Assembly: GCF_039503195.1 (NCBI RefSeq) | Contig: NZ_JBCJKP010000001.1 | Coordinates: forward strand, 868,001-932,000 | From: Streptomyces mirabilis | Lineage (GTDB): Bacteria > Actinomycetota > Actinomycetes > Streptomycetales > Streptomycetaceae | Direction: 5' to 3' | Length of the DNA: 64,000 nucleotides | Shown: positions 6,292 through 28,550 of the stretch, piece by piece | How positions within the stretch are numbered: position 1 is the first letter of the stretch | Layout: each line of letters begins with the position of its first letter | Notes under the pieces: model-generated | Told to the model about the DNA's origin: nothing | Seen by the model: the letters and a program-made list of their open reading frames with translations, nothing else | Databases searched by the model: none | Made by a program: the position numbers and the translations under genes

Positions 6292-6399
6292 GGCCCTCAT
6301 CCTGCACGGCTGGAACATCGAGGACCTCCCGTACGCCACCTCCACCGACGGCGGAGCACCAGCGACCCGTCCCTCCTCGTGCTCAAGGAACCCGACCCG

Positions 6400-7105: not shown

Positions 7106-7284
7106 GGCACCAACACCGGGCTCACCGCCGCTCGTTCGGAGGACTTTCCCTGCGTGGTGTCGCCGCTCTGTCTCCGAATCCCCGCGGAATTGTCCGTGAT
7201 CGGTAACGGACGCATCCCCCGGCGGCCCATCGCCGTCCTCACGGATGCACGAGATCCACGAGCACGACGAGGAGTGGGGCGGAC

Positions 7285-8079: not shown

Positions 8080-8098
8080 GTACCCGCCACTCGTCCTC

Positions 8099-8140
8099 TC
8101 AGCGGGTGAGTCCGACCCTTCAGCGGGTGAGTCCGTCCTT
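8099..8140. repeat. 21-bp tandem duplication at the 3' end of the sugar-binding protein gene
   Basis: Two adjacent 21-bp units (8099-8119 and 8120-8140) agree at 19 positions; both begin TCAGCGGGTGAGTCCG. The inner unit encodes the last residues and stop of the minus-strand lipoprotein, and the outer unit is a near copy just beyond the stop. It looks like a local slippage duplication of the gene end and leaves a back-up stop codon. Confidence 0.6.
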
Positions 8141-9205
8141 TTCGCAGGCGGGCCGGAGCTCGGCGGTGCAGATCTCGTCGACCCTGTACATGCCGTCCTT
8201 GACGAGCGTCGGCTTGATCTTGTCCACCGTCACCGCCCTCGGCGTGAGCAGGACGGAGGGGATGTGCCTGGTGGTGGGACTGTCGGTCGTCGTCGTGGCG
8301 ATCTTGCGCAGTTCCTCTCCGCGTCCCAGGGCGACGGCCATGGCGGCGGCCGCGTCGGCCTCCGCCTTGAAGGGTTTGTAGACCGTCATGTACTGCTCGC
8401 CCTTGACGATGCGCTGCACGGCGTCAAGGTTGGCGTCCTGGCCGGTGACGGGAGGAAGGTCCTTGACCCGGGCGCTCTTCAGAGCGGAGATGACGCCCGC
8501 GGCGATGGTGTCGTTGGCCGCCAGGACGCCGTCGATCCGGTCCGGGCCCAGGGCCGCCATCGCGGCGGACATGTTGGCGTGGGCGCTGTCCATGCTCCAG
8601 CCCTGGGTGTCGTACGCCCTTCCGATCTTCACCTTGCCGGAGACGACGGACAGTGCGCCGCGACGGAACCAATCCGCGTTGGGGCTGCTCGGATCACCGT
8701 TCATCATGACGACGTTTCCGCCGTTCGCCTTGTCGCCCATCGCCTTCAGGAGCGCCTCGCCCTGGAGCCTGCCGACCTGCGCGCCGTCGAAACTGACGTA
8801 GCCCGAGATCGGGCCTTCGGCGAGCCGGTCGTAGGCGAGGACCGGGACACCCGACTCGTGCGCCTCCTGGATCGAGGAGCGCAGCGCCCTGGTGTCGGTG
8901 GCGTCCAGGATCAGGACCCTGACCCCTTTGGTGATCATGGAGCTCATCTGTTGCCGCTGCCTCATCGCGTCGTTCTGGGCGTTGGCGTACTCCAAGGTGC
9001 AGTGGGGGCACAGCTGCTTCAGCCGCTTCTCGATCAGCGGCTTGTCGGACCGCTCCCAGCGGGGGATGGTTCGGCTCGGGAGCAGCAGGCCGACGGTGAA
9101 GCCGTCCTTGCCCCTCCCCTCTTCCAGTTCTTCGCAGGCGGCCAGGGACGTCGTCATGAATCCCGCGACGAGCACCGCGACGACGTGCCATGTACGGGTC
9201 CTCAT
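8120..9205 (-). CDS. xylose-type sugar ABC transporter substrate-binding lipoprotein (paralogue 1)
   Basis: 361 residues. It starts with a lipoprotein signal ending in the lipobox LAAC (Cys24). The mature part is a type-I periplasmic binding protein: FTVGLLLPSRTIPRWERSDKPLIEKRL, VRVLILDATDTRALRSSIQEA, PVLAYDRLAEGPISGYVSFD, VVMMNGDPSSPNADWF and GVLAANDTIAAGVISAL are all XylF-like. It would bind a pentose or related sugar at the outer membrane face. Its ATG overlaps the stop of the upstream SpoIIE-type phosphatase (ATGA) and GGGGG precedes it, so the two are translationally coupled. There is no transporter gene on this strand; it may share the permease encoded at 13045-15116 or act as a sensor. 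It is a close paralogue of the protein at 11918. Confidence 0.88.
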   Translation of the reverse strand: MRTRTWHVVAVLVAGFMTTSLAACEELEEGRGKDGFTVGLLLPSRTIPRWERSDKPLIEKRLKQLCPHCTLEYANAQNDAMRQRQQMSSMITKGVRVLILDATDTRALRSSIQEAHESGVPVLAYDRLAEGPISGYVSFDGAQVGRLQGEALLKAMGDKANGGNVVMMNGDPSSPNADWFRRGALSVVSGKVKIGRAYDTQGWSMDSAHANMSAAMAALGPDRIDGVLAANDTIAAGVISALKSARVKDLPPVTGQDANLDAVQRIVKGEQYMTVYKPFKAEADAAAAMAVALGRGEELRKIATTTTDSPTTRHIPSVLLTPRAVTVDKIKPTLVKDGMYRVDEICTAELRPACEKDGLTR

Positions 9206-11736: not shown

Positions 11737-11800
11737 GTCGGCGACCTACCTCCCGTCGATGCGTCAGGTGCCGACGGATGGAAATCAGGCACCCGCACAC

Positions 11801-11836
11801 CAGAATCGTATATGGGTATCAATAGGACATATCCAT
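11801..11836. promoter_or_regulatory. AT-rich divergent promoter/operator between phosphatase and sugar-transport genes
   Basis: The 181-bp gap between two divergent units contains one AT-rich stretch. In it, ATATG (11810-11814) and CATAT (11828-11832) form short inverted arms around GGTATCAATAGGA. This is the obvious place for the divergent promoters and a shared regulator site. No regulator gene adjoins it. The assignment rests on composition and the weak inverted repeat only. Confidence 0.35.
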
Positions 11837-11917
11837 CAGCCGGTGTCACACTTACGACGTGGTCGTCCTGCCACCGGGCCCTCGCCGCGCGAGGTGAAGG
11901 ACAGGGAGGTCTCTCGC

Positions 11918-13006
11918 ATGAAGGCCTGCATCCGGGGCGCGGTCGTCGTCGTGACCGCGATCTCGACGGCCGTCGCTCTCACGGCCTGCGGGCACGACGC
12001 CGGGAGCGGCTCCGGCGGTGGCAACAACCTGACGATCGGTGTGCTGCTGCCCGACGCCGCCACGACTCGTTGGGAGACACAGGACACGCCGCTGCTCACG
12101 AAGAAGATCACGGAGCTGTGCCACGACTGCACGGTCGAGCACGTCAACGCCAAGGGCGACGTGGCCACCCAGCAGGAGCAGATGGACTCGATGATCACCA
12201 GGGGGGTCGATGCCATCGTGCTCGCGGCCGTCGACGCCAGATCGCTCGGCGTCGTGGTCAAGAAGGCCCATGCGGCAGGTATCCCGGTCATCGCCTACGA
12301 CCGTCTCTCCCAGGGCCCGATCTCCGGTTATGCCTCCTTCGACGGCGAAGAGGTCGGCAGGCTCCAGGGCAGGGCACTGCTGAAGGCGATGGGCGCCAAG
12401 GCGCGCACCGGCGCGGTCGTCATGATGAACGGCGATCCCAGCGACCCCAACGCGGTGGCGTTCAAGAAGGGCGCGCTGTCCGTGCTCAACGGGAAAGTGA
12501 AGATCGGCAAGGCGTACGACATCCTCCAGTGGCGGCCGGAGGGCGCGAACCTCGACATGTCCGGCGCCATCTCCGCTCTCGGTGTCTCCGCCATCCAGGG
12601 GGTCTACGCCGCCAACGACGGCCTCGCCGCCGGCAGCATCTCCGCCCTCAAGGCGAACAAGGTCGCCCCACTGCCTCCCGTCACCGGACAGGACGCCGAA
12701 CTGGGAGCCCTGCGGCGCATCGTCGCCGGCGATCAGTACATGACCGTCTACAAACCCTTCGCTCCCGAGGCTTCCGCGGCCGCGGCCATGGCCGTGGCCG
12801 CGGCCCGCCATGAAAACCTCGACCGGGTCACCACGGGCAAGGTGAGGACCCGCGACGGGAGGACGGTTCCCGCCACCATGCTCACCCCCGTGTCCGTGAC
12901 CGCCGACAACATCAAGAACACCCTGGTGAAGGACGGCGTCTACACGATCCGGCAGATCTGCACACCCCAACTCGCGGCCGCCTGCGGCAAGGCGGGGCTC
13001 ACCTGA
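11918..13006 (+). CDS. xylose-type sugar ABC transporter substrate-binding lipoprotein (paralogue 2)
   Basis: 362 residues with a lipoprotein signal ending at LTAC (Cys24), then a type-I periplasmic binding fold: LTIGVLLPDAATTRWETQDTPLL, DAIVLAAVDARSLGVVVKKA, PVIAYDRLSQGPISGYASFD, VVMMNGDPSDPNAVAF, GVYAANDGLAAGSISAL. It shares long identical stretches and the C-terminal (Y)R(V/I)xxIC and LxxAC positions with the paralogue at 8120-9205. A local inverted duplication around the phosphatase gene is likely. GGGAGG precedes the ATG at 11918. It is followed within 40 bp by its ATPase and permease genes and should deliver a sugar to them. Confidence 0.9.
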   Translation: MKACIRGAVVVVTAISTAVALTACGHDAGSGSGGGNNLTIGVLLPDAATTRWETQDTPLLTKKITELCHDCTVEHVNAKGDVATQQEQMDSMITRGVDAIVLAAVDARSLGVVVKKAHAAGIPVIAYDRLSQGPISGYASFDGEEVGRLQGRALLKAMGAKARTGAVVMMNGDPSDPNAVAFKKGALSVLNGKVKIGKAYDILQWRPEGANLDMSGAISALGVSAIQGVYAANDGLAAGSISALKANKVAPLPPVTGQDAELGALRRIVAGDQYMTVYKPFAPEASAAAAMAVAAARHENLDRVTTGKVRTRDGRTVPATMLTPVSVTADNIKNTLVKDGVYTIRQICTPQLAAACGKAGLT

Positions 13007-13044
13007 CGGGCAGGTACCGAGCAGGTCCGGGCCCCGGGAAGGAG

Positions 13045-13827
13045 ATGGTGACCGTGCCGACTCCCCCCTTGTTGGCGCTGCGTGGCGTGTGCAAGCGCTA
13101 TGGCGTCGTCGAGGTGCTCACCGACATCGAACTGGAGATTTACGCCGGCCAGGTCGTCGCTCTCCTGGGGGACAACGGTGCCGGCAAGTCCACCCTCGTC
13201 AATGTCATCTCCGGCGTCGCCCCCGCGGACAAGGGCACCATCGAGTGGGAAGGCCGGGCGGTCCCCATCAAACGCCCCCACGACGCCCGGGACCTCGGTA
13301 TCGCCACCGTCTATCAGGACCTCGCGCTGTGCGGGAACCTCGATGTCGTCGGCAACCTCTTCCTCGGACGCGAGATCCGCAGGTTCGGGTTCCTCGACGA
13401 GGTGGAGATGGAGCGCCGCACCAGGCACCTGCTGGAACGCCTGACCAAAGGTGTCCCCGATCTGCGGGTCCCCACCGTCTCACTCTCCAGCGGCCAGCGG
13501 CAAACAGTCGCCATCGCCCGCTCACTCCTCGGCAACCCGCGGGTTCTCCTCCTGGACGAACCGACCGCGGCTCTGGGATTCGAGCAGACGCGCGAGGTCC
13601 TGGACCTCGTCGACCAGCTGCGCGACCGCGGCCTGGGAGTACTGCTCATCAGTCACAACATGGGCGACGTCAAAGCTCTCGCGGACCGGGCCGTCGTGCT
13701 GCGGCTCGGTCGCAACAACGGCTTCTTCGACGTGAACACCGCATCTCAGGAACAGATCATCTCCTCCGTCACCGGCGCCACGGAGAACGAGCCCCACCGG
13801 ATGGCCTCCCACGAGTCGGGGTGGTGA
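13045..13827 (+). CDS. sugar ABC transporter ATP-binding protein (single-NBD XylG/MglA-like)
   Basis: 260 residues. Walker A is GDNGAGKST, the Q-loop region is VYQDLALC, the signature is LSSGQRQ (usual form LSGGQRQ), Walker B is VLLLDEP, and the H-loop is LLISHN. Escherichia coli XylG carries two fused nucleotide-binding domains; this one has a single domain, as is common for the actinobacterial xylose-type systems. It energises the permease encoded next, overlapping it as GTGA. Start is uncertain: GGAAGGAG abuts the ATG at 13045, and GTG at 13048 or 13054 would have better spacing. Confidence 0.9.
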   Translation: MVTVPTPPLLALRGVCKRYGVVEVLTDIELEIYAGQVVALLGDNGAGKSTLVNVISGVAPADKGTIEWEGRAVPIKRPHDARDLGIATVYQDLALCGNLDVVGNLFLGREIRRFGFLDEVEMERRTRHLLERLTKGVPDLRVPTVSLSSGQRQTVAIARSLLGNPRVLLLDEPTAALGFEQTREVLDLVDQLRDRGLGVLLISHNMGDVKALADRAVVLRLGRNNGFFDVNTASQEQIISSVTGATENEPHRMASHESGW

Positions 13828-15116
13828 AAGGGATGCGCAGGACGGCGGACAACGCTCGGGCCGAACCCACCGAACCCGACGCCGAGGCCCCGCGGCCCCG
13901 TCACGGGCAGGCCTTCGTCCGCGCCGTCGTTGGTGTCGTCCATCGCTGGGCCGCCGTCGCCCGGCGCAAGCTCAGCGCCGGCGAACTGGGCTCACTGCCC
14001 GTCGTCCTCGTCCTCGCCGCGGTCTGGATCACCTTCCAGTCCCTGAACCAGAGCTTCCTCTCGCCCCGGAACCTGTCCAATCTCAGCGTGGACGTCGCGG
14101 GCACCGGTCTCATCGCGGTAGGCATCGTCTTCGTCCTCCTGATCGGTGAACTCGACCTGTCGGTCGGCTCGATCAGCGGTCTCGCGGCGGCCGTCTTCGC
14201 CGTTCTCAACGTGAACAACGGCGTGCCCGAATGGCTTGCCGCCATCATCGGGGTGCTCACGGGTACCGCGGCGGGAACCATCCAGGGCTTCTCCTTCGCG
14301 AAAACCCGGGTGCCGGCGTTCGTCGTCACACTCGCGGGACTGCTCACCTGGAACGGCTTCATGCTCTACATCCTCGGGACCAGCGGCACCGTCAACCTCG
14401 ACGAGAAAGGGCTCGTCGCCAAGCTGACCAGCTACTACTTCACCAACGACGCCGTCGCCTACGGCTTGGCGGCGATCGCCGCGGCCCTGGTCTTCCTCGT
14501 GGGCTACCAGGACAGGCGGCGCCGCAAGACCGTCGGCATGCCGTACCGCTCGCTGCGGGGAATCGTGGCGCGCACCGGACTACTCGCGGTGATCGCGTTC
14601 ACCGGCGCGTATCTGCTCAACCGCTTCCAGGGCCTGCCGCTCGCCCTCCTGATCTTCCTCGTCGTGGTGGCCGGCCTGGACATCGTGCTGCGCCGCACAC
14701 ACTACGGGCGGCAGATCTACGCACTCGGCGGCAGCCTCGAGGCAGCCCGCCGCGCCAGTCTCAGTGTCACGGGGGTGCAGACCGCGGTGCTCGCGATCTC
14801 GGGCACCATGGCCGCGATCGGCGGTCTGTTCCTGGCCTCGCGCATCACCTCGGTGAGCCAGAGTTCGGGCTCGGGCGTCCTGCTCCTCAATGCCATCGCG
14901 GCGGCCGTCATCGGGGGCACCAGCCTGTTCGGAGGACGCGGCACGACCTGGTCCGCCGCGCTCGGCATGCTGATCATCCAGTCGATCGCCTCGGGCATGG
15001 CACTCACGGACATCCCCGCTGCCGTCCAGTTCGTCATCACGGGCGGGGTGCTCTTCGCCGCGGTGGTCATCGACTCGCTGTCACGCCGCTCGCAGAAGGC
15101 ACACGGGCGGGCTTGA
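13824..15116 (+). CDS. sugar ABC transporter permease (XylH-like)
   Basis: About 430 residues, a BPD_transp_2 type permease with roughly ten to twelve hydrophobic segments. Diagnostic pieces are LLIGELDLSVGSISGLAAAVFA, FVVTLAGLLTWNG, the cytoplasmic EAA-like loop YALGGSLEAARRASLSV, and AAVIGGTSLFGGRGTTWSAALGMLIIQ. It forms the membrane channel for the sugar captured by the lipoprotein at 11918. GTG 13824 overlaps the ATPase stop; ATG 13833 is an alternative. An Arg/Pro-rich cytosolic N-terminus of about 45 residues precedes the first membrane segment. No metabolic genes for the sugar follow. Confidence 0.88.
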   Translation: MKGMRRTADNARAEPTEPDAEAPRPRHGQAFVRAVVGVVHRWAAVARRKLSAGELGSLPVVLVLAAVWITFQSLNQSFLSPRNLSNLSVDVAGTGLIAVGIVFVLLIGELDLSVGSISGLAAAVFAVLNVNNGVPEWLAAIIGVLTGTAAGTIQGFSFAKTRVPAFVVTLAGLLTWNGFMLYILGTSGTVNLDEKGLVAKLTSYYFTNDAVAYGLAAIAAALVFLVGYQDRRRRKTVGMPYRSLRGIVARTGLLAVIAFTGAYLLNRFQGLPLALLIFLVVVAGLDIVLRRTHYGRQIYALGGSLEAARRASLSVTGVQTAVLAISGTMAAIGGLFLASRITSVSQSSGSGVLLLNAIAAAVIGGTSLFGGRGTTWSAALGMLIIQSIASGMALTDIPAAVQFVITGGVLFAAVVIDSLSRRSQKAHGRA

Positions 15117-15266
15117 CGGGTGTGGCCCGAGATCACCGTGGCAGGTTTGGCCGCGAGCTACGAGGCTGCTGTGAATTCGTGCGGCGTTTGAACGCTACCG
15201 GGCTCGCCTGCGTATGGGACGGGGGATTTCCATGCCTGGCCTGCCACGGGACGTAGGAGTACACAC

Positions 15267-17360
15267 GTGAGACGCAACACGCGCAGACGCCCCATGGGGG
15301 CACAGCGTGCAACCTTTGCCGCAGCCGCACTGATACTGGGCGGAGGAGGGCTCGTAGCGGTCAATGTCTACGCTTCAGCGACCGAGAGCGGCTCGGCCGG
15401 TGCGCCCGGTCAGGCGAACCCGAGCAACCAGACCTGGTCGGGAGCCGCCACGATCGACTGTCCGGACGTGGGCAGCAAACTCGCCGAGGTGCCACAGCAG
15501 GCACGGGCGGACGTCGACAAGGAACTCGCCCTTCTCGACCAGCAGATCTCCGAGGCGTACGCACGAATGACCTCGGAGCAGCAGGCCAAGGCACAGGACG
15601 CGGACTTCGTCCAGAACGCGATCCTCGGTCCGCTGAAGGAGAAGCGGGGCGCGGTCATCGACCGCATCAAGACCGGCTTCAAGAACGCGGGCGCCGAAGC
15701 CCCGAACTCGCTCGACGCTCTGGCCACCTGCACCGCGGTCCCCGCGGACCAGCCCCAGAACAACGCCGGTGGCCAGAACGGCAACGGCCAGCAGCAGAAC
15801 AACAACGGCGGCCAGCAGGGCGGGCAACAGGGCGGCGGCCAGCAGGGCGGCGGCGCGAGCGCCGCCAGCGGCCCCGTCGCAGCGGACTTCGTGGACATCA
15901 CGACGCTCCAGCCGAACGTGCCGCAGAAGCCGGGCAGCGGCGGCAACGCCTCGACCGGCACGTTCACCAGCTCGTGCGGTGTGAACGCCAACAAGAAGTT
16001 CAACACCGACAACGTGATCGTCGCCCCCGGTGTCACCAACGGCGCCCACCACCTGCACGACTACGTCGGCAACCAGTCGAACGACGCGTTCGCCACGAAC
16101 GACGATCTCGCCAAAGCCGCGACCACGTGCCAGAACCAGGGCGACAAGTCCACGTACTACTGGCCGGTGCTCCGAGTGCAGGACGGTACGCAGGAGTTCG
16201 ACGCCGACAAGAACGGGGGCGGCCTGGAGGGCAACGTCGGAAAGGTCCTGCAGGCGAAGCAGGCGCAGATCGAGTTCATCGGCAACCCGCAGAGCAAGGT
16301 CGTCGAGATGCCGACGTTCCTGCGCATCATCACGGGCGACGCGAAGGCGTTCACCAACGGCCCCGCGAACGCCAACGCCCACTGGAGCTGCACCGGCTTC
16401 GAGGACAAGGTGCAGCTGACGGACAAGTACCCGATCTGTCCCCAGGGCAGCAGCGTGGTGCGGTCGTTCGCCTTCCAGAGCTGCTGGGACGGTCAGAACA
16501 TCGACAGCGCCAACCACCGCACGCACGTCGCCTTCGCCGACGCCAACGGCAACTGCGCGGGCGGCTTCAAGGCGATCCCGCAGCTGACGATGCGCCTGGT
16601 CTACGACGTTCCGGCGCCGACCCTCGAGAACGGCCAGGTGAAGAACCCGTACGCCGTGGACGGGTTCCCGGAGCAGGTGCACAAGGCGATCACGGACCAC
16701 GACGACTTCATCAACGTCTTCGACGCATCCCTCATGCGGGAGATGGTGGACTGCATCAACGCCGGGCGACAGTGCGGCGACGGTGCCGGTGGAGGGGCCG
16801 GCGGCGGTGCCGGTGACAATGGCGGTGCCGGTGGCAACGGCGGAGCCGGCACGGGCGAGCCGTCCCCGAGTCCTGACGCCTCGTCCGGCGGCAACGACGC
16901 GACAGCCTCCGCAACCCCCACGGACACGCAGACCACGCAGCCTCCGGCCAGTACGCCCGGCACCACCGAACCGACGCGCGGCGGCCAGACCACAGGCACC
17001 GGCACCGGTACCGGCCACACTGTCGTCGTGCCCAAGGCGGACACGTCACCCTCGGCCGAGGCGAGCGACACGGCCGCCGCACCGCAGGGCGGCGCGCACG
17101 GGCACCACGGCAGCGAAGCGACCCACCGACCGCAGACGCCGGCCGCGGGCGCGGGCGCGGACACCCCGTCCACGCAGGCGACAGCGCAGGACACGTCACC
17201 GGCAGGTTCGCAGTCGCAGTCGCAGTCGCAGACCGAACCGCAGACGGTCACCGGCGATCTGGCCGACACCGGCACGAACCTCTGGCCGGCCGCGGCCGGA
17301 GGGGTTCTCGTGATCGCGGGCCTGGTGCTCCTGCGCCGCATCCGGCGCGGCTCCGTGTAA
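15267..17360 (+). CDS. secreted DUF1996 protein with C-terminal LAxTG sortase signal
   Basis: 697 residues. N-terminal signal peptide ([21 protein letters not shown]), then a helical region of about 100 residues ([20 protein letters not shown]) and a Gln/Gly/Asn low-complexity linker. A DUF1996 domain follows at about 205-490, with the family's Cys and His positions: [39 protein letters not shown]. Next comes a long Ser/Thr/Pro/Gly-rich wall-spanning stalk. The tail is LADTG, a hydrophobic helix, then RRIRRGSV. LAxTG is the recognition motif of class E sortases in streptomycetes (known from chaplins), so covalent attachment to peptidoglycan is expected. DUF1996 function is unknown. The GTG start follows GGAG by 8 nt. 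Confidence 0.85.
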
Positions 17361-20506: not shown

Positions 20507-21541
20507 TCAGCCGTGTCGGCGCAGGTCGTGGAAGAAGTCCTCGATGACGTGGAGGTGCCCGGAGCGGGCCGTCTCGTTGTAGACGTATGCGCCGACGGCG
20601 AGGTCGAGCACACCGAGTCCGAAGGGTGAGAACACCAGGGGCCGGTCGGTGGGCGGTGTCACTCGGCCGGTCATGACATCGGCGAGTGTTCCGTGCAGGA
20701 AGTCACGGTTGCCGGTGAGCTGCTCGGCCAGATGGGGGGACGTGCCGGCCTTGAGGCAGTGGTCCACGTCGTCGACGATGTTCGCCGAGGCGAGGATGAC
20801 CTCGGGTGCGAGGTCGCGCAGGGACACGTGCAGGACCAGGGGGTTGTGGTCGAACCAGGCCGGGTCGCCGATGTGCGGCCGGCCCGCGACGGTGGCGAAG
20901 ACGACGAGGTCGCTGGAGCGGATGACCGCCTCGGGAGTCTCGTGCACGGTGACCTGTCCCGTGGCGTCGCTCTGTTGGACGTGGTCGCGGAAACCGGCGG
21001 CACTGTCGCCCGACAGGTCGTGGACGCCGGTCTCCTCGAAGGACCATCCCAGGGCTGTCAGGAAGGTGTGGATGTAGCGGGCGATCAGACCCGTACCGAA
21101 GAACCCGATGCGGGTGGGGCGCAGCCGGTTGCGGGTGAGGTGGTCGGCGGCCAGTGCCGCCGACGCGGCGGTTCTGGTGGCGCTGATGATGGAGCTTTCC
21201 AGGCAGGCGAAGGGGTAGCCCGTGTCGTGGTCGTTGAGGATCAGCACCGCGGAGGCCCTGGGGATGCCGGCCTGGACGTTGTCCGGAAAGCTGGAGATCC
21301 ATTTGATGCCGTCCACCGGCGCCGGTCCGCCGATCGAGGCGGGCAGCGCGATGATCCGGGCGGTGGGCCGGTCGGGAAAGCGCAGGAAGTAGGACGGGGG
21401 GTTGACCGACTCTCCGGCGGCGTGCAGGTGATAGGTGGCCTCGACGAGGTCCACGATCTGCTTCTCCCGATCCTGAAGGGCGTACTGGACCTGGGCGCCG
21501 GAGATCACTGCGAAGGTCGGCACGAGGTGCGGCTGGGACAT
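20507..21541 (-). CDS. sbnB: SbnB-like N-(2-amino-2-carboxyethyl)-L-glutamate dehydrogenase (Dap synthesis)
   Basis: 344 residues of the ornithine cyclodeaminase/mu-crystallin family. Visible are PSYFLRFPDRPTARIIALPA, GIKWISSFPDN, RASAVLILNDHDTGYPFACLESSIISATRTAASAA, and the Rossmann stretch IGFFGTGLIARYIHTFL that binds NAD. SbnB oxidatively hydrolyses N-(1-amino-1-carboxyl-2-ethyl)-glutamate to L-2,3-diaminopropionate plus 2-oxoglutarate. The SbnA partner lies across the cluster at 27564-28550, which supports this over an ornithine cyclodeaminase. ATG 21541 follows GGAG by 6 nt. It is the last gene of the minus-strand operon. Confidence 0.85.
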   Translation of the reverse strand: MSQPHLVPTFAVISGAQVQYALQDREKQIVDLVEATYHLHAAGESVNPPSYFLRFPDRPTARIIALPASIGGPAPVDGIKWISSFPDNVQAGIPRASAVLILNDHDTGYPFACLESSIISATRTAASAALAADHLTRNRLRPTRIGFFGTGLIARYIHTFLTALGWSFEETGVHDLSGDSAAGFRDHVQQSDATGQVTVHETPEAVIRSSDLVVFATVAGRPHIGDPAWFDHNPLVLHVSLRDLAPEVILASANIVDDVDHCLKAGTSPHLAEQLTGNRDFLHGTLADVMTGRVTPPTDRPLVFSPFGLGVLDLAVGAYVYNETARSGHLHVIEDFFHDLRRHG

Positions 21542-21584
21542 GACGGGCTCCAGTGCGAGGGAAAGGTCGGGGGTCGTACGGCGC

Positions 21585-21776
21585 TCACCTCGCCGGTCGG
21601 CGACCACGCGGCCCTGCGCAGCGGCTCGGCCATGGCGAGGACCTCGCGTGGCCCTTGGAAGGCCTCGCTGCTGTGCGCTCAGGCAGGCGAACAACAGGGA
21701 TGTCGGTGTGCGGGGTCGGGGGTCCGCCGGGGTTCAGGTGCACCTCGACGAGGGACGCCGGGGCCGCGTACCGCAT
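21585..21776 (-). CDS. possible small protein in the Dap polymer operon
   Basis: A 63-codon reading frame. Its ATG at 21776 is preceded at good distance by AAAGGA, which belongs to the triple repeat next to it. The first 30 residues (MRYAAPASLVEVHLNPGG...) look protein-like; the rest is Arg/Pro-rich like non-coding frames. It does not carry the MbtH signature. It may be a real small peptide, a leader for sbnB, or a truncated relic. No homologue is recognised. Confidence 0.35.
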   Translation of the reverse strand: MRYAAPASLVEVHLNPGGPPTPHTDIPVVRLPERTAARPSKGHARSSPWPSRCAGPRGRRPAR

Positions 21777-21784
21777 GGTGCTGA

Positions 21785-21844
21785 TCCTTTCGATGTCGGT
21801 CAGGTCCTTTCGATGTCGGTCAGGTCCTTTCGATGTCGGTCAGG
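21785..21844. repeat. perfect 3 x 20-bp tandem repeat containing a Shine-Dalgarno sequence
   Basis: Three identical 20-bp units, TCCTTTCGATGTCGGTCAGG on the plus strand, run from 21785 to 21844. On the coding (minus) strand each unit contains GAAAGGA. The outermost unit overlaps the NRPS stop codon (21840-21842), and the innermost supplies the ribosome binding site of the small ORF that starts at 21776. Copy number could change by slippage and alter spacing between NRPS and downstream genes. Confidence 0.85.
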
Positions 21845-24395
21845 CGGAGGTCGGTGGTGGGGTCGTGTGGCGTTGGGGTCCGTGGTCGACCAGCGCGGCG
21901 AGGTCGGTGAGGACCGGGTGTGCGGTGACGTCCTTGAGGGAGACCGCGCGGTCCAGGGTGATGGCGAGCTTCACCGCCGAGAGGGAGGTGCCGCCGCGGT
22001 CGAAGAAGTGGTCGCGGCGTCCGATCCGGTCCTGCGGGACACCGAGGACCTTCGCCCAGGCGGCCGCCAGGCGCTGCTCGGTCGACGTGACCGGCGGCTG
22101 GTGCTCGTCGTCGGTGGTGGCGGGTGCTGCGGCGAGTGCCGCCAGGGCCTTCTTGTCGATCTTGCTGTTGGCGGTCAGCGGCAGGCTTTCGCGCCAGTGG
22201 AAGGCCGACGGGACCATGTACTCGGGCAGCGACTCGGCGAGCCGGTCGCTGAGGGTCCCCGTGTCCAGGGGTTTCGGGCCGGAATAGAAGGCGACCAAGT
22301 GCTTGCTCCGGTCGGCGCGTTCGACCGTCACCACCGCGCCGTCGCGGACACCGGGGAGACGAAGCAGAGTGTTCTCGATCTCGCCGATCTCGATCCGGAA
22401 GCCGCGGATCTTGACCTGGGCGTCGCGGCGGCCGAGGAACTCCAGCTTGCCCGAAGGGTGCCAGCGGCCGTGGTCGCCGCCGAGGTACAGCCGTGTGCCT
22501 TCGCGGTGCGGATCGACCAGATAGGAGGCCCGGGTGAGTTCGGGGTCGTTGATGTAGCCGCGGCCGACGCAGACCCCGGAGAAAGCGATCACGCCCGGAG
22601 CGCCGAGCGGCACCGGGGTGAGGTGTTCGTCGACGACGTGGACGCGTACGTTGTTGACGGCGCGGCCGAGCAGGATGCGGTCCGGCGCCCGGTCCATGAC
22701 CTCGTGGTTGGTGTCGTCCGAGGTCTCGGTCAGCCCGTAGGCGTTGACCAGCTTGATCCCGGGCTGGACGGCGAACCAGCGCTCGGCGAGTTCCTTCTTC
22801 AACGCCTCGCCGGTGACCGACACGAACCGCAGGTCCGGCAGCGGGCGGGGGCGCTGTTCGAGCTCCGTCAGGACGGCTTCGAGGTAGGACGGCACGACCT
22901 GGAGGACGGTGACCTCGCCGTCGGTGAGGGTGTCGAGGAAGCGGGGTACGTCGAGGATGACGTCCTGTGCGACCAGCAGGGTCCGCCCGCCGACCAGCAG
23001 CGCGCAGACCAACTGCCACAGGGAGATGTCGAAGCACTGGGGCGCGGTCTGGGCCACCACGTGTCCCTCGCCGACGTGGAGGTCGTCGATCTTGGCGTAG
23101 AGGTGGTTGAGCATGCCCGCGTGCTCGCACATCGCGCCCTTGGGCTCACCGGTGGAGCCGGAGGTGAAGTAGATGTAGGCGAGCTGGTCGGGCGTGACCG
23201 GGATGCCGAGATCACCGTCGGGGTGGTCTTCCGCGTAGGCCGTGTCGACGAGGAGCCGCTCGGTTCCGGGAAGGGAGTCGAGGGCCCGGTCGAGGGTGGT
23301 GGTGCTGCCGGGTTCGGTCAGCACCAGGGTGCATGCGGCGCGGGAGAGCGTGGCGGCGATGCGTGCGGCCGGGAAGTGCGGCTCGACGGGGAGGTAGGCG
23401 CCTCCGGCCTTGAAGACCGCGATGACGGCGGCCAGCCAGTCCAGATTGCGTGCGGTCACCACCGCGACCACGCTTTCGCGGGCGAGCCCACGAGCTACCA
23501 GGGCGCGGGCGAGCCGGTTGGCCCGGGCGTTGAGTTCCGCGTACGTCCACTGCCGGTCGGCATGCACGGCGGCGACGGCGTCCGGATGCTTGCGCACCCG
23601 GTCCTCGAACAGCTCGTGCATCCGCGCGTCGGGCAGTTCCCGGACCGGTCCGGCCAATTGGTCGAGCTGGAACCGCAATTCCTCGGCGGACAGCAGGCTC
23701 TGGTGCGTGTGCTCGGCATCGGGGTCGGCGGTGATCAGCGCGAGCGCGGTCAGGTGGTAGCCGGCGATACGGGCGGCGCTGTCGGCGTCGAGCGCGTCGG
23801 TGCGGTAGCGCAGCCGCAGTACGAGCCGCCCGTCGTGGTGACGGACGCCCACCCGCAGTGCGGTGTCCTCGGTGAGGGCTCCGTCGATCGCGGCGGGATC
23901 GAGAACGGACTCGGTGGGGTCGAAGAGGGTCTCGGTGAGGTCGAGGACGGTCCCGAACAGCGGCCCGGTCAGGCCCAGTTCGCTCTTCAGAGCGTCGATG
24001 TCCTCGGCCGGGACGTCCTGGTGCGCCGGCAGTTCGGTGGCGACCTGGTGGGCGTGGTGCAGCAACTCGCGCCAGGAGGCGGGCGCGGTGGTGAGCCGGC
24101 ACAGGAGCGGGCTGCCGCCCCGGGCGACGTAGCCGGTGGTGATCTCCCTCTCTCCGGACAGTGCCGCGACCACCTTGGCGTGCGCGGTCAGCAGGAGCGA
24201 GGCCGGTGGTACCGCCAGCTCCGCCGCCAGACGGCGCAGCCCGGTCACGGTGTCCTCGGGGACCGGTGTCTCGTACTCCCCCACGCCGGGCACGGGCTGA
24301 AGGGTCCAGCGTGGGGCGGGGGTGAAGCCCCCGGCTGTCAGTGCGTCGCGCCAGTATGCGCGGGCGGTCCGACTGGGACTGACATGCGTGTCCAT
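21840..24395 (-). CDS. NRPS adenylation-thiolation protein with partial condensation-like N-terminus
   Basis: 851 residues. Residues about 1-240 resemble only the second half of a condensation domain (RAYWRDALTAGGF to GYHLTALALI); the catalytic HHxxxDG half is missing. A complete A domain follows (about 265-765): A3 FTSGSTGEPKG, A4 FDISLWQLV, A5 NAYGLTETSDD, A8 GRRDAQVKIRGFRIEIGEIE, A10 LTANSKIDKKAL. A T domain is at about 775-840 (FFDRGGTSLSAVKL, phosphopantetheine Ser). Read by eye, the pocket residues are D-I-W-S-S-T-A-D-D-K; the two inner Asp fit a cationic substrate such as Dap. It lies between the Dap genes and a Pls-like membrane protein. GAGGAAAG precedes the ATG. Confidence 0.88.
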   Translation of the reverse strand: MDTHVSPSRTARAYWRDALTAGGFTPAPRWTLQPVPGVGEYETPVPEDTVTGLRRLAAELAVPPASLLLTAHAKVVAALSGEREITTGYVARGGSPLLCRLTTAPASWRELLHHAHQVATELPAHQDVPAEDIDALKSELGLTGPLFGTVLDLTETLFDPTESVLDPAAIDGALTEDTALRVGVRHHDGRLVLRLRYRTDALDADSAARIAGYHLTALALITADPDAEHTHQSLLSAEELRFQLDQLAGPVRELPDARMHELFEDRVRKHPDAVAAVHADRQWTYAELNARANRLARALVARGLARESVVAVVTARNLDWLAAVIAVFKAGGAYLPVEPHFPAARIAATLSRAACTLVLTEPGSTTTLDRALDSLPGTERLLVDTAYAEDHPDGDLGIPVTPDQLAYIYFTSGSTGEPKGAMCEHAGMLNHLYAKIDDLHVGEGHVVAQTAPQCFDISLWQLVCALLVGGRTLLVAQDVILDVPRFLDTLTDGEVTVLQVVPSYLEAVLTELEQRPRPLPDLRFVSVTGEALKKELAERWFAVQPGIKLVNAYGLTETSDDTNHEVMDRAPDRILLGRAVNNVRVHVVDEHLTPVPLGAPGVIAFSGVCVGRGYINDPELTRASYLVDPHREGTRLYLGGDHGRWHPSGKLEFLGRRDAQVKIRGFRIEIGEIENTLLRLPGVRDGAVVTVERADRSKHLVAFYSGPKPLDTGTLSDRLAESLPEYMVPSAFHWRESLPLTANSKIDKKALAALAAAPATTDDEHQPPVTSTEQRLAAAWAKVLGVPQDRIGRRDHFFDRGGTSLSAVKLAITLDRAVSLKDVTAHPVLTDLAALVDHGPQRHTTPPPTSA

Positions 24396-24430
24396 CGGGT
24401 CTTTCCTCTGCTTGTCGGCGGCGCGCGGTG

Positions 24431-27076
24431 TCAGAGGCCGCGAGCCGGGGCGGACTGGCTGGTGTGGGGTTCCTTACCGGCCTCGACCTGGGTCCTGTGG
24501 TCCGGCATCTCCCGGGCAGGGTTGCCTCCCCATTGGGCGTGCGAGGGGATCTCCTCGCCCTTCATGAGGAAGGAGTCGGGGGCCAGCGCGGCGCCGTCCG
24601 CGATGGTCACGCCGTAGTGGACGAAGGCGCCGACGCCGAGGGTGCAGCCGTTGCCGAGGGCACTGCGGTCGGACTTGAAGGCGCCGTCCTCCTGCGAGTG
24701 GCACTGGACCACGGTGCCCGCGTTCAGCGTGCTGTCGTCGCCGATGGTGACGAGGGTGCGCTCCGGGAAGAAGCAGCCGTCGTCGAAGACCCGCTTGCCG
24801 ATCCGGGCCCCCAGCAGCCGCCAGATCACGTTCTTGAACGGGGTGCCGTCGAAGGCCTGGATGTAGTGGACCGAGGCCATCTTCCAAAAGCGTTCGTGGC
24901 GCCAGAAGGAGGGTTCGTAGATCGAGCAGTACAACGGCTTCTGGGGCTTGAATCCGGTGGAGGCCCGCTCGACGAGCGCGAAGTGGACGACGGTGTACGT
25001 CAGGGTGAGGACACTGGCCAGTGCGATCGCCAGCGCGCCGAACGACGGGTAGAGGTCGACCGCGCCCATGGTGATGAGGGTGATCACGAACAAGTGGATC
25101 AGCCGCGCGAGCAGATACAGGCCGGCGGTCGCCGCGTTGTGCCTGTTCTTGGCGGCCAGGCGGCGGCGCAGTTCGTCGCCGGTCTCGAGGTGGTTGAACC
25201 GGTTGTCGCGCATCACCGTGCGCGGGATCTCGAAGCTGGGTGAGCCCAGCAGGCCCACGCCTTCGCGCACGGGTCCGTCGATGGGGACCATGACCTTCGT
25301 CGCGAGCAGGCAGTTGTCTCCGGTCCTGCCCTGCGCGGGGTAGGCGATGCGGTTTCCGAGGAAGTTGTGCGGCCCGATCGACGTGCGGGACACACGGAAG
25401 GACGTGCTGGAGAAGTCCGCGTTCATGAGGGACAGTCCGTCGGCGATCATGGTGCCGGTGCCGACCGAGCTCAGGTAGGGGTTCTCGTGCTGCACTTCGG
25501 TGCCGAAGTTCGACCCGGTCTGCTCGACGCGGGACAGGTCGTATCCGAGGTAGCGCAGGTAGTGGACGATGCCGGAACTGTCGCCGAAGAGGGTGGTGAG
25601 GGACTTCCTGTTGGTCATCACCGCGATCGCCCGCTGAATGCCGTAGTGGAAGCCGTACAGCGGATAGACCTTGCCGGGTTGGACGGCCCGGCTCAGAAAA
25701 CGCGGCACGGTGCCCACGACGAGGAGGCCGGCGAGCAGGGATCCGAACAGGAGGACCACGGAGGCGATCAGGGCATCGACGTAGAACGCCGGGCTGGCCA
25801 TCGGCTGCGGGTTCAGGAACGTCTGAAGCTGCGGGAGACCCGTGAGCAGGGCGGTCACGCCGCCCAGCGCCAGCGGCAGGTACACCGCCAGCAGGCTCAG
25901 CAGCTGTACAACGCCGTACGCGGTCCTTTTGGCGGTGGAGCAGTCGGCGGGGTCGACCCTCCGGTAGTCCACCTCGGTCGGCTGCGCGGGGGAGCCGTGT
26001 CGGCGTTCGCCGGCGGGCACCACCTGGCCGGTGTGCAGGGAGGATGCGTGACCCAGCTGGGCGCCGTCGCCCATCGAGGTCTCGATGTCCAGGACCGTGT
26101 GCTCGCTGACGAGCACGTTGCTGCCGAGAGTGACCGGGCCGGTCTGGATCACGCCGGCGTGGGCGCGGTAGCAGGACAGCAGCACGTCCTTGCGGATGAT
26201 CGTGCCCTCGCCGACGGTGAGCAGGTCGGTGCAGACCGGGATCGTGTGGGAGAGGATCGTGACGCCCTTGCCGATCCGTGCCCCGAGCGCCCTGAGGTAG
26301 AGCACGTAGAGCGGTGAACCGGCGAACAGACGCACGGGGCTGGTGCGGATCAACGTCTTGACGACCCAGAAACGCACATAGGCCATGCCCCACAGGGGGA
26401 ACTCCCCGGACCGCCAGCGGCCGACGAGCGTCCACTTCACCACGATCGGAAGGGCGCACAGGCCGAGGAAGCCCGCGCCGGCGAGCAGGACGGACCGCAG
26501 ATAGAGGTCGAACAGGCCTGATCCCGCGGAGATCCACTCATGACCTTCCTCGACGGCCAGGGCGACAAGGCAGGAATAGCCCAGGAAGATCAGGAACTGC
26601 AGCACTCCACAGACGACGTAGCGCCGTGTACGAGCCGCCGCCTGCGCCTCGGCCCGCGCCGTCCCCTCTGCAGAGGCCCGCACGTCGGTCGGTGTCCGCG
26701 CCGGTGACGGCGCCTCCGCGGACGGGGACGGGACGGGGGCGGCGGTGGAGATGGGGGCAGGAGCGGGAGCGGCATCGACGAGCGCGGTGGCCAGGCTCCG
26801 GATGGTGGGGTGCCGGTAGATGTCCTTCATCGACACCGCCGGCATGTCCCCCCGCTTCCTGACCCGCGCGCAGAACTGGGCCATCACCAGGGAATCGGCA
26901 CCCAGGTCGTTGAAGAAGTGGCCGTCGACCGGGACCTGCTCGACGCGGACGACCCCGGCCAGCACGTCGGCCAGAAGCCTTTCGGTGTCGGTCGCCGCAT
27001 CGGCGTCCCCACTGCCCTGGAGGGGTGGGATGTCAGCCGGTTCGGCCGTCAAGACCTCCACGGATTTCTCTAGCAC
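24431..27076 (-). CDS. Pls/PosA-like thiolation plus membrane hexapeptide-repeat protein
   Basis: 881 residues from GTG 27076, which follows GAGGAG by 5 nt. Order: T domain (about 30-105, FFNDLGADSLVMAQF, Ser62), Pro/Ala linker, two TM helices (GVLQFLIFLGYSCLVALAV; SVLLAGAGFLGLCALPIVV), a left-handed beta-helix domain (ARIGKGVTILSHTIP...), two TM helices, a second hexapeptide domain (TGTMIADGLSLMNADF...), two TM helices, and a third (ARIGKRVFDDGCFFPERTLVTIGDDSTLNAG...). Six TM helices around three tandem soluble domains are the C-terminal half of epsilon-poly-L-lysine synthetase (Pls), which links amino acids iteratively. Here the A domain is on a separate protein, encoded 35 bp downstream. 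Confidence 0.85.
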   Translation of the reverse strand: MLEKSVEVLTAEPADIPPLQGSGDADAATDTERLLADVLAGVVRVEQVPVDGHFFNDLGADSLVMAQFCARVRKRGDMPAVSMKDIYRHPTIRSLATALVDAAPAPAPISTAAPVPSPSAEAPSPARTPTDVRASAEGTARAEAQAAARTRRYVVCGVLQFLIFLGYSCLVALAVEEGHEWISAGSGLFDLYLRSVLLAGAGFLGLCALPIVVKWTLVGRWRSGEFPLWGMAYVRFWVVKTLIRTSPVRLFAGSPLYVLYLRALGARIGKGVTILSHTIPVCTDLLTVGEGTIIRKDVLLSCYRAHAGVIQTGPVTLGSNVLVSEHTVLDIETSMGDGAQLGHASSLHTGQVVPAGERRHGSPAQPTEVDYRRVDPADCSTAKRTAYGVVQLLSLLAVYLPLALGGVTALLTGLPQLQTFLNPQPMASPAFYVDALIASVVLLFGSLLAGLLVVGTVPRFLSRAVQPGKVYPLYGFHYGIQRAIAVMTNRKSLTTLFGDSSGIVHYLRYLGYDLSRVEQTGSNFGTEVQHENPYLSSVGTGTMIADGLSLMNADFSSTSFRVSRTSIGPHNFLGNRIAYPAQGRTGDNCLLATKVMVPIDGPVREGVGLLGSPSFEIPRTVMRDNRFNHLETGDELRRRLAAKNRHNAATAGLYLLARLIHLFVITLITMGAVDLYPSFGALAIALASVLTLTYTVVHFALVERASTGFKPQKPLYCSIYEPSFWRHERFWKMASVHYIQAFDGTPFKNVIWRLLGARIGKRVFDDGCFFPERTLVTIGDDSTLNAGTVVQCHSQEDGAFKSDRSALGNGCTLGVGAFVHYGVTIADGAALAPDSFLMKGEEIPSHAQWGGNPAREMPDHRTQVEAGKEPHTSQSAPARGL

Positions 27077-27563
27077 GTGAGCTCCTCGATGACGTTTCAT
27101 TCGGCGTCGGTCGGTACGGACGGATTCGTGATGTCCGCGCCTCTCCAGTAGGCCCGGCCGAGGGCTTCGTGTCCTGCCCCTGCATTTCGGGGCTTGACGA
27201 AGCGCATGGGTCTTGACAGTCCGGCCATTTTGCCCGTCTTCGCCCCGCGATCCCCTACTTTCCGTGCGCGTCGCGCAGGCTTAGGACCACGCCTCACAGA
27301 GCCCCGTTCGACCCGCGGGAAACCCACCCGGGAATTGGGCTGAACGGCCGCGCCCGGCCCGGTCACGACTGCTTTTGCCCGCAGACAGCGCGTGTCAAGT
27401 CCCGAATTTCGGTGGCATGACAGGGGGCCTGGATTCGGGCGTACTGAAGTCGTTCCGGCGACTCGCGACTCGCCGCTCCGAATTCCTCTCCACGCCGCAC
27501 CCGGACGGATCAGCGGCAGGACGACCGGATGACGATCCCACCCCCGCAGTGAAGGAGACGACC
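27077..27563. other. 487-bp divergent intergenic region of the Dap polymer cluster
   Basis: No coding frame is supported. The stretch separates the minus-strand Pls-like operon from sbnA on the plus strand and must hold both promoters. It is less GC-rich than its surroundings in places (27180-27240 and 27395-27430). TTGACA occurs at 27213-27218 on the plus strand but no -10 box lies at the right distance. No convincing iron-regulator box or other operator was found. Confidence 0.4.
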
Positions 27564-28550
27564 ATGCCCGTCATATCCGTCCCCCAGGACTACAACGAGG
27601 ACGATCTCTTCGTCGACCTGGAGGGAATGTTCGGGCACTCGCTGTTCCTCAAGTGCGAGGGCTTCAATTTCGCCGGTTCGATCAAACTCAAGGCCGCCAC
27701 CGAAATGGTCGAGGCCGCCGAACGCGACGGCCTGCTGAGGCCGCGCTCGGTTCTGGTCGAGTCGTCCTCGGGCAACCTGGGCGTGGCTCTGAGCATGATC
27801 GCTGCCGCCAAGGGCTACCCGTTCCTGTGCGTGACCGACTCCCGCTGCAACCTGGCGACCCGGCTGATGATGGAAGCCCTGGGAGGCCAGGTCCACGTCA
27901 TCACCGAACCCGACCCCGTCAGCGGCTTCCTCGGCGCGCGCATCGACCACGTCCGCGCGCTGTGCGCCTCCGAGGACCGCTATGTGTGGCTCAACCAGTA
28001 CACCAACCCCAACAACGGCATGGCCCACTACCGCAGGACCGCACCGGCCGTCGCCCGGCAGTTCCCGGACCTGGACGTCCTGTTCGTCGGGGCCGGCACG
28101 ACCGGGACCCTGATGGGCTGCGCGCGCTACTTCCGCGAGTGGCACCGCCCGGTGCGCGTCGTGGCCGTGGACAGCGTGGGCTCCGTGACGTTCGGCGGCG
28201 ACGCCGGTCGGCGGATGATTCCCGGCCTGGGCGCCAGCAGACGCCCGCCGATGCTGGACGAGTCGTATGTGGACGACGTGGTGCGCGTGGCCGAGACCGA
28301 CACCATCCGGGCCTGTCACCGGCTGGCCGGGCGCGGGTTTCTGTTCGGAGGGTCCACCGGCACGGTGGTCAGCGGCGCGATGGACTGGCTGGCCCGGCAC
28401 CAGGAGCGGGAGTTGACCGCGGTGGCCATCGCCCCGGATCTGGGTGAGCGGTATCTGGAGACCATCTACCAGACCAACTGGGTGCGGGACCTGTACGGCG
28501 AGGACGCCGTCGACTCCCAGGCGTTGACCGGCACGTCCCGGGCCGCCTGA
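27564..28550 (+). CDS. sbnA: SbnA-like O-phosphoserine-dependent 2,3-diaminopropionate precursor synthase
   Basis: 328 residues, fold-type II PLP enzyme related to cysteine synthase. The PLP lysine is Lys41 in FAGSIKLKAA. The substrate loop is VESSSGNLGVALSMIAAAKG, the phosphate-binding loop is GAGTTGTLMGCARYF, and the C-terminal FGGSTGTVVSGAM follows. SbnA couples O-phospho-L-serine with L-glutamate to N-(1-amino-1-carboxyl-2-ethyl)-glutamate, which SbnB then converts to L-Dap. AAGGAG precedes the ATG by 8 nt. It is divergent from the polymer operon. The siderophore staphyloferrin B uses the same pair, but no siderophore synthetase of that type is present here. Confidence 0.85.
   Translation: MPVISVPQDYNEDDLFVDLEGMFGHSLFLKCEGFNFAGSIKLKAATEMVEAAERDGLLRPRSVLVESSSGNLGVALSMIAAAKGYPFLCVTDSRCNLATRLMMEALGGQVHVITEPDPVSGFLGARIDHVRALCASEDRYVWLNQYTNPNNGMAHYRRTAPAVARQFPDLDVLFVGAGTTGTLMGCARYFREWHRPVRVVAVDSVGSVTFGGDAGRRMIPGLGASRRPPMLDESYVDDVVRVAETDTIRACHRLAGRGFLFGGSTGTVVSGAMDWLARHQERELTAVAIAPDLGERYLETIYQTNWVRDLYGEDAVDSQALTGTSRAA

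What the first reader, a model, noticed from the sequence alone, without database searches (positions are those of the whole stretch)
20507..28550. Split Pls-like synthetase with Dap biosynthesis genes: candidate poly- or oligo-diaminopropionate system
SbnA- and SbnB-type enzymes, an A-T protein, and a T/six-TM/three-hexapeptide-domain protein lie within 8 kb. In epsilon-poly-L-lysine synthetase the A-T part and the membrane part are one chain; here they are two proteins encoded 35 bp apart. Dap supply and an A pocket with two Asp residues point to a cationic Dap polymer. Poly-Dap has been reported from Streptomyces albulus, to my memory from a Pls-related system; whether this split form is the same or new is open.
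Basis: partly seen in the sequence, partly recalled or inferred. Interest (0 to 1): 0.85.

Follow-up and report, generated by a model that had tools for sequence, protein, structure and literature searches.

The report
Two-part Dap polymer synthetase, dioxygenase lost
This Streptomyces locus encodes a membrane-bound peptide-polymer machine that has lost its own amino-acid-loading domain and is probably fed instead by a separate enzyme with the unusual amino acid diaminopropionate; an oxidising enzyme that usually belongs to the set survives here only as a remnant, so the product is unknown and can be tested.

Summary
The genes are real and placed as stated: a T/six-TM/three-hexapeptide protein (TIGR02353, 794 bits), an A-T protein and SbnB on the minus strand, SbnA divergent. 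Reading this as a Pls gene split in two is not supported. The A-T protein is an NRPS-type module with half a condensation domain and pocket DIWQSTADDK; its best-matching solved pocket is the Dap-bound A3 domain of sulfazecin synthetase. The membrane protein falls in a clade (56 of 85 rows, support 99) beside single-chain synthetases that neighbour 2,4-Dab supply genes. Best reading: a trans-fed, A-less Pls-type synthetase for a Dap oligomer or polymer, in a stripped copy. Product and function are untested. My paper searches showed no description of this arrangement; antiSMASH's NAPAA label may cover such loci.

The parts
24431..27100 (-). T / six-TM / three-hexapeptide-domain membrane protein, 889 aa, Pls/PosA C-terminal part without an A domain
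   Evidence: TIGR02353 794.4 bits over cut-off 423.1, residues 163-862; AF2 model; Foldseek and VIA: hexapeptide acetyltransferases
26780..26977 (-). carrier (T) domain of the membrane protein, motif LGADSL with Ser70
   Evidence: PF00550, residues 42-107; Ser70 invariant in 43 rows
24396..24430 (.). 35-bp gap between the membrane-protein and A-T genes (same strand, likely one operon; operon inferred)
   Evidence: ORF coordinates
21840..24395 (-). C'-A-T protein, 851 aa: half condensation domain, adenylation domain, carrier domain; no thioesterase in this copy
   Evidence: Pfam; AF2 and VIA; no TE match in the window
23676..24395 (-). C': C-lobe only of a condensation domain; N-lobe with HHxxxDG absent
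   Evidence: Pfam Condensation profile 311-451 of 456, 20.3 bits, below the 30.6 cut-off; no HHxxxD in residues 1-260; model residues 1-6 align from residue 186-188 of EntF and SrfA-C
22161..23609 (-). adenylation domain, pocket code DIWQSTADDK
   Evidence: best solved pocket match is Dap-bound SulM A3, 9n1u
21888..22076 (-). carrier (T) domain of the A-T protein, motif GGTSL
   Evidence: PF00550, residues 774-836
21785..21844 (.). three exact 20-bp tandem copies at the A-T stop, just upstream of the dioxygenase remnant, each holding GAAAGGA on the - strand
   Evidence: sequence
21542..21776 (-). remnant of a TauD/clavaminate-synthase-like Fe/2OG dioxygenase gene (5' end, a short middle piece and the 3' end kept, with large internal deletions). 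The long SbnB ORF wrongly includes part of it
   Evidence: alignment with intact copies in L006, L007, L009, L085; one intact family member elsewhere in the genome at E <= 1e-20
20507..21541 (-). SbnB-type enzyme for 2,3-diaminopropionate synthesis, 344 aa from ATG 21541
   Evidence: TIGR03944 428 bits over cut-off 326.9
27101..27563 (.). divergent intergenic region, presumed promoter region for both directions (inferred; no sigma-70-like match found)
27564..28550 (+). SbnA-type PLP enzyme for 2,3-diaminopropionate synthesis, 328 aa from ATG 27564
   Evidence: TIGR03945 386.8 bits over cut-off 350

Best explanation
This is a two-protein, trans-fed Pls/PosA-type synthetase for a Dap-derived isopeptide oligomer or polymer, in a reduced copy. 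Steps: (1) SbnA and SbnB make L-2,3-diaminopropionate (inferred from family membership). (2) The A domain of the C'-A-T protein adenylates Dap and loads it on its own T domain; the half condensation domain should not condense, because its catalytic lobe is missing (absence shown by sequence and model, inactivity inferred). (3) Dap then passes to the membrane protein, either from T1 to the T2 carrier or straight to the condensing domains, because the A domain that once sat in that chain is gone (inferred). (4) The three hexapeptide-fold domains form amide bonds repeatedly at the membrane, as proposed for Pls (inferred from family). (5) In complete relatives an Fe/2OG dioxygenase oxidises Dap while it sits on T1, and in some a thioesterase acts on T1 (inferred from two A-T-TauD fusions and gene order). 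In this window both are missing, so this copy should feed plain Dap unless the paralogous locus supplies the dioxygenase in trans.
For: Family matches over cut-off. Pocket DIWQSTADDK in 33 of 35 trans A-T proteins, window and L085 included (the others: one cut by a contig end, one DIWQCTTDDK). Best solved pocket match is SulM A3, solved with Dap bound. One clade of 56 of 85 rows, SH-aLRT 99, holds the A-less, decayed-A and dioxygenase-linked membrane proteins; two rows labelled partnerless lie outside it, L044 (cut by a contig end) and L076 (frameshifted), both with A-domain sequence upstream. Motifs A3, A8 and A10 altered or lost, A4 in some, in built-in A domains of that clade. Of 10 chains with a decayed built-in A (L031, L032, L033, L038, L052, L053, L064, L069, L083, L087), 9 have the C'-A-T gene alongside (of L033's only the C' part is seen before the contig ends); of 26 with an intact A none has (18 of these 26 with full flanks). 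Built-in and trans A domains are far apart. C'-A-T-TauD fusions with the same pocket in L111 and L112. Dioxygenase in 31 of 35 loci of the A-T-linked groups. All four window genes are intact, dN/dS 0.18-0.33 against S. olivochromogenes L008.
Against: No product, expression or enzyme data. The loss of the dioxygenase in this copy, and its loss with other breakpoints in L008, may mean decay rather than a working variant; dN/dS cannot date the loss. A thioesterase in 14 of 35 loci would suit a defined product. Transfer between the two T domains has no direct evidence. SbnAB-like enzymes can also make 2,3-diaminobutyrate (PMC4052310). In L057 the partner shows C', T and thioesterase but no A domain. 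13 A-less rows of the clade have no C'-A-T in the stretch held (one, L088, has another AMP-binding gene upstream). L032 is a draft contig whose A-T gene is also split over two frames, so its decay may be partly sequencing error. The tree is a quick one, midpoint-rooted, and the k-of-n counts ignore kinship.
Confidence: 0.6

Rival explanations
1. The set makes a small defined Dap compound (dapdiamide- or monobactam-like building block), and the membrane protein acts only once, as an acyltransferase or release/export step, not as a polymerase.
For: Same gene kit as the dapdiamide-type cluster of Pantoea vagans: sbnA, sbnB, TauD, A-T, alpha/beta hydrolase in order (L090). Dap-activating A with thioesterase and 2OG oxygenase also occurs in sulfazecin (PMC6097109, PMC11298585). 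A-T with TauD and SbnAB also occurs without the membrane protein in the 18-kb stretches held, next to other A domains in L111 and L113. Thioesterase in 14 of 35 loci.
Against: No ATP-grasp, DdaG-type ligase or sulfotransferase among the window proteins scanned (not every ORF was scanned). The polymerase part is conserved over its full length (695 of 695 profile positions) with its T Ser and many invariant residues. Its nearest single-chain relatives carry Dab supply genes as poly-Dab synthetases do (PMC8225329).
Confidence: 0.2
2. The window copy is a decaying paralog with no present function; the complete copy at C1:6.83 Mb does the job.
For: Dioxygenase reduced to a remnant, thioesterase absent; complete second copy with dioxygenase and thioesterase in the same genome (L085).
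Against: The other four genes are intact with dN/dS 0.18-0.33. The close homologue cluster of the membrane protein holds 106 member sequences (P0005, 98% identical). The thioesterase is also absent in relatives with an intact dioxygenase (L006, L007, L009).
Confidence: 0.12
3. The monomer is L-2,3-diaminobutyrate (methyl-Dap), not Dap; otherwise as in the best explanation.
For: SbnAB-like DabA/DabB make 2,3-diaminobutyrate in lipopeptide pathways (PMC4052310, passages). A SulM A3 structure with a methyl-Dap inhibitor exists (9n1v).
Against: L112 has a phosphoglycerate dehydrogenase beside SbnAB, which suits a serine-derived precursor.
Confidence: 0.06
4. Siderophore assembly of the staphyloferrin B kind.
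For: SbnA and SbnB also serve staphyloferrin B (PMC4668381).
Against: No IucA/IucC-type synthetase among the window proteins scanned and no match to the iron-box sequence that I searched (pattern recalled).
Confidence: 0.02

Closest known systems
Pls / PosA / PddA / PDAP synthetases (single-chain homopoly-amino-acid synthetases)
   Same: T domain, six TM helices in three pairs and three hexapeptide-fold domains (TIGR02353 over cut-off); diamino-acid monomer (inferred here)
   Different: no A domain in the chain; A-T supplied by a separate NRPS-type protein with half a C domain and its own T; pocket DIWQSTADDK instead of the D-x-E type (PMC10522769, passages)
S. albulus PDAP synthetase with NjxA/NjxB (PMC4668381, parts 1-3 of 5 read)
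   Same: Dap monomer made by SbnA/SbnB-type enzymes; Pls-like terminal part
   Different: one 4,338-bp ORF there, Dap genes not near it, the word dioxygenase does not occur in the paper (count 0); sequence not compared here
Dapdiamide / herbicolin I type cluster (ddaA-ddaE homologues in L090, Pantoea vagans pPag2)
   Same: SbnA, SbnB, TauD oxygenase and A-T NRPS side by side; DdaC acts on a carrier-tethered Dap derivative (PMC12451424, passages)
   Different: ATP-grasp and DdaG-type ligase genes there, none seen among the window proteins scanned; no Pls-like membrane protein annotated there; L085 oxygenase 33% identical to the P. vagans DdaC homologue; pocket of the P. vagans A-T protein DSEDIGVINK
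Sulfazecin SulM module 3 with SulG/SulH and SulO
   Same: A domain that binds Dap (closest solved pocket), Dap genes, 2OG oxygenase, thioesterase in some relatives of the window set
   Different: beta-lactam-forming Cys thioesterase and N-sulfonation there (PMC11298585, passages); a full C domain and lack of a membrane polymerase there are recalled

Membership tests
Pls/PosA single-chain homopolymer synthetase | C-terminal TM plus three tandem soluble domains (TIGR02353) | tested here: met
   794.4 bits over 423.1, full profile; model
Pls/PosA single-chain homopolymer synthetase | A domain in the same chain | tested here: not met
   only PP-binding and weak Hexapep in the 889-aa protein
Pls/PosA single-chain homopolymer synthetase | carrier domain with Ser in the same chain | tested here: met
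   LGADSL, Ser70
Pls/PosA single-chain homopolymer synthetase | pocket with Asp at 1 and Glu at 3 (PMC10522769) | tested here: not met
   DIWQSTADDK in the partner protein: Asp at 1, Trp at 3
Pls/PosA single-chain homopolymer synthetase | iterative isopeptide product | not testable with these tools
   needs enzyme or mass spectrometry
S. albulus PDAP synthetase | single ORF with A, T and C-terminal part; Phe at pocket position 2 | tested here: not met
   two ORFs; Ile at position 2
S. albulus PDAP synthetase | sequence closeness to EXU85975.1 | not tested
   sequence not obtained
Dapdiamide-type cluster | SbnA and SbnB homologues | tested here: met
Dapdiamide-type cluster | carrier-acting Fe/2OG oxygenase (DdaC) | tested here: not met
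   only a remnant in the window; an oxygenase is present in 31 of 35 related loci
Dapdiamide-type cluster | DdaF/DdaG ligases | tested here: inconclusive
   none among the 20 window proteins scanned with Pfam; not every ORF of the window was scanned
Canonical NRPS elongation module | complete condensation domain with HHxxxDG | tested here: not met
   N-lobe and motif absent
Dap-activating A domain | activates Dap | tested here: inconclusive
   closest solved pocket is Dap-bound SulM A3, but by my reading the PvdL columns DIWELTADD share more letters with ours; PvdL loading 2,4-Dab is recalled

The most novel reading that the evidence does not exclude
A widespread, undescribed class of two-component poly-amino-acid synthetases in actinomycetes. 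The polymerase has discarded its own A domain and takes Dap from an NRPS module on which a dedicated oxygenase has first oxidised it, giving a secreted oxidised-Dap oligomer or polymer (possibly with two kinds of linkage, using two carriers, as in the comb-like poly-Dap for which I saw no genes named). The window copy has lost the oxygenase and would make the unoxidised version.
Probability: 0.3. Interest if true: 0.8.

Novelty: new variant of a known kind. Interest (0 to 1): 0.6.

Why it matters
Single-module Pls-type enzymes load and polymerise one amino acid within one chain. Here evolution seems to have uncoupled the two and replaced the loading part with a module from another enzyme class, with surviving intermediates that suggest the order of events. 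If it works, it is a natural template for feeding other or modified monomers into a membrane polymerase. It also points to an unknown product family (Dap, with or without oxidation): relatives of the A-T-TE protein fill all 120 listed protein clusters at 78-98% identity, nearly all named ones from Streptomyces (their gene neighbours were not checked). The two copies in one genome, with and without the oxygenase, allow a direct genetic comparison.

Tried and rejected
Gene fission of a Pls gene: rejected. Siderophore: no synthetase among the proteins scanned, no iron-box match. Promoter or terminator signals in the divergent region: none found. Poly-Dap as the sister group: two single-chain loci tested have aspartate kinase and Dab transaminase nearby (L043, L048), and the kinase family is in 11 of the 26 single-chain loci, so that group looks like poly-2,4-Dab enzymes; PDAP synthetase itself could not be placed, as I had no sequence. 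Prevalence over the genus: not obtained (tool failures below). In the relatives sample 14 of 37 genomes of the window's genus have the A-T protein at E <= 1e-150, some of them without the membrane protein next to it. My first label 'fusedDegenA' (11 rows) is wrong for L057: its long ORF is a stop-to-stop artefact over SbnA, so it is not among the 10 decayed-A chains used here, but it is still among the 35 loci. L033's partner is cut by the contig end; L087 (plasmid record) has no partner in the stretch held and is the 1 of 10. A strict motif check on the 26 intact A domains found all of A3, A8 and A10 in 23; L047, L051 and L073 each miss one pattern. L001-L003 (duplicates of L086, L085 and W) and L079 (frameshifted) were dropped from the tree; W, L085, L086, L087 and L088 were left out of the counts. 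L005 looks like a joint of the two paralogous loci (assembly or recombination) and was kept. My recall that DdaD has a half C domain and a thioesterase was not borne out (578-579 aa; and PMC12451424).
Full report
What is there. On the minus strand, in order of transcription, lie a T/six-TM/three-hexapeptide protein (24431-27100), an A-T protein (21840-24395, 35 bp on) and SbnB (20507-21541). SbnA (27564-28550) points the other way. The terminal domain matches TIGR02353 end to end at 794 bits (cut-off 423); SbnA and SbnB pass their equivalog cut-offs. The predicted structure of the membrane protein (mean pLDDT 67, pTM 0.68) shows a carrier domain, then three repeats of a TM helix pair and a left-handed beta-helix domain; the best matches of those domains in Foldseek and VIA-align are hexapeptide acetyltransferases.

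How the two-protein form arose. A scan of genome contigs gave 80 loci (L005-L084, the best 80 of 119). In a tree of 85 membrane-part rows (quick method, midpoint root), 56 rows form one clade with SH-aLRT 99. Outside it lie 26 single-chain proteins with intact A domains (25 with DFECLSVVTK, one DFECLSAVTK), the own-genome enzyme L086, and L044 and L076, which are cut or frameshifted. Eleven of the 26 loci have a gene of one family whose two scanned members are aspartate kinases, and the two Dab-transaminase-family genes scanned (L043, L048) match that family, as expected for poly-2,4-Dab synthetases. Actinokineospora, named as a source of PddA/PddB homologues in PMC8225329, is among them. Inside the clade the built-in A domain is decayed (L031, L032, L033, L038, L052, L053, L064, L069, L083, L087: motifs A3, A8 and A10 altered or lost) or absent. 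Of these 10 decayed chains 9 have a C'-A-T gene next to them (L033's is seen only in its C' part before the contig ends); of the 26 with intact A none has, 18 of them with full flanks. The A domains of the two types lie more than five changes per site apart in a tree with two single-chain rows. So most likely an NRPS loading module was recruited and the built-in A domain then decayed; the chain was not split. The counts ignore kinship, L052 and L053 are identical rows, and L032 comes from a draft contig with other frame breaks.

The missed fifth gene. Downstream of A-T many relatives have a TauD-type oxygenase of the clavaminate-synthase kind, with HxE and the distal His kept in the rows aligned. 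Counting the A-T-linked groups without W, L085, L087 and L088, it is in 31 of 35 loci (SbnA 31, SbnB 30, thioesterase 14; L057, whose partner lacks an A domain, is among the 35). In the window, 21542-21776 keeps only the 5' end, a short middle piece and the 3' end of this gene; S. olivochromogenes L008 has also lost most of it, with other breakpoints. In two other genomes of the genus, C'-A-T and the oxygenase are one protein with the same pocket code, next to SbnA and SbnB and with no match to the membrane protein in the 18-kb stretches held (L111, L112). That fusion is the best evidence that the oxygenase works on Dap held by the A-T carrier, as DdaC does on a tethered Dap derivative in dapdiamide synthesis (PMC12451424, passages) and unlike SulO, which acts after release (PMC11298585, passages).

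Two copies in one genome. The host genome (11.1 Mb, close to Streptomyces mirabilis by the 98% match P0005) has a second, complete set at L085: SbnA, SbnB, oxygenase, C'-A-T-TE and membrane protein, and a single-chain enzyme with DAESIGTVVK (L086), which has the Ala at position 2 that PMC10522769 links with lysine. One intact oxygenase of this family was found in the genome at E <= 1e-20. The window genes are intact, with dN/dS 0.18 (SbnB), 0.22 (membrane protein), 0.30 (A-T) and 0.33 (SbnA) against L008; much of that divergence may predate the losses.

How it most likely works. Shown by sequence: the parts, their families, the pocket, the missing C lobe, the missing built-in A domain, the remnant. 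Inferred: Dap synthesis; loading on T1; transfer to the membrane protein; repeated amide formation there; oxidation on T1 in complete relatives. How Dap gets from T1 to the membrane protein is the open step. The conserved Ser70 of T2 argues that T2 is used.

Known or new. Single-chain synthetases for Lys, Orn, Dab, beta-Lys and Dap are known (PMC10522769, PMC9606270 and PMC8225329, passages; PMC4668381, parts 1-3 of 5). The S. albulus poly-Dap enzyme is one 4,338-bp ORF and its Dap genes lie elsewhere. I found no description of an A-less, trans-fed form in searches, judged from their listings and the passages read; the library lacks most subscription papers. antiSMASH tables list 'NAPAA' regions whose best known match is stenothricin at 13% (PMC10272871, PMC10458361, passages). 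These may be such loci, but I did not check. A comb-like poly-Dap is cited by two papers (passages); I have not read the original and saw no genes named for it.

Noticed in passing
window 21785-21844: Three exact 20-bp tandem copies, each with a GAAAGGA ribosome-binding-like stretch, just upstream of the dioxygenase remnant; the five other sequences aligned do not show three exact copies.
   Followed up: partly
L005 (S. diastatochromogenes) 5645-17156: The locus joins a window-type membrane and A-T gene (97%, 96%) to a thioesterase, oxygenase and KAS-like gene 98-99% like L085, with SbnB and a second SbnA only 78% and 77% like the window's: recombination between paralogs or a chimeric contig.
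   Followed up: no
L010, L015, L019, L021 and others: A-less membrane proteins without a C'-A-T partner in the stretch held; L010, L015 and L019 share an upstream gene family (DUF418/acyltransferase-3 in L010), and L019 and L021 show a second T-domain match. They may be fed from elsewhere in the genome.
   Followed up: partly
L025, L028, L030, L041, L046: A second trans-fed form: membrane protein, the same oxygenase family, a stand-alone A domain of another type (DASVATMRSK) and a short neighbouring protein family that is a carrier protein in L028. The five membrane proteins form one clade with support 100.
   Followed up: partly
L112: C'-A-T-TauD fusion with SbnA/SbnB, a phosphoglycerate dehydrogenase and ketosynthase-like genes: possibly a different Dap-derived metabolite.
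   Followed up: no
L085 301-2112: KASII-like gene with an N-terminal extension of about 190 aa next to SbnA of the complete paralogous set; also present in L005.
   Followed up: no
L087 (Pseudonocardia plasmid): Single-chain Pls-type protein with a decayed A domain and three T-domain matches, followed by the oxygenase, with no A-T gene or Dap genes annotated in the stretch.
   Followed up: partly
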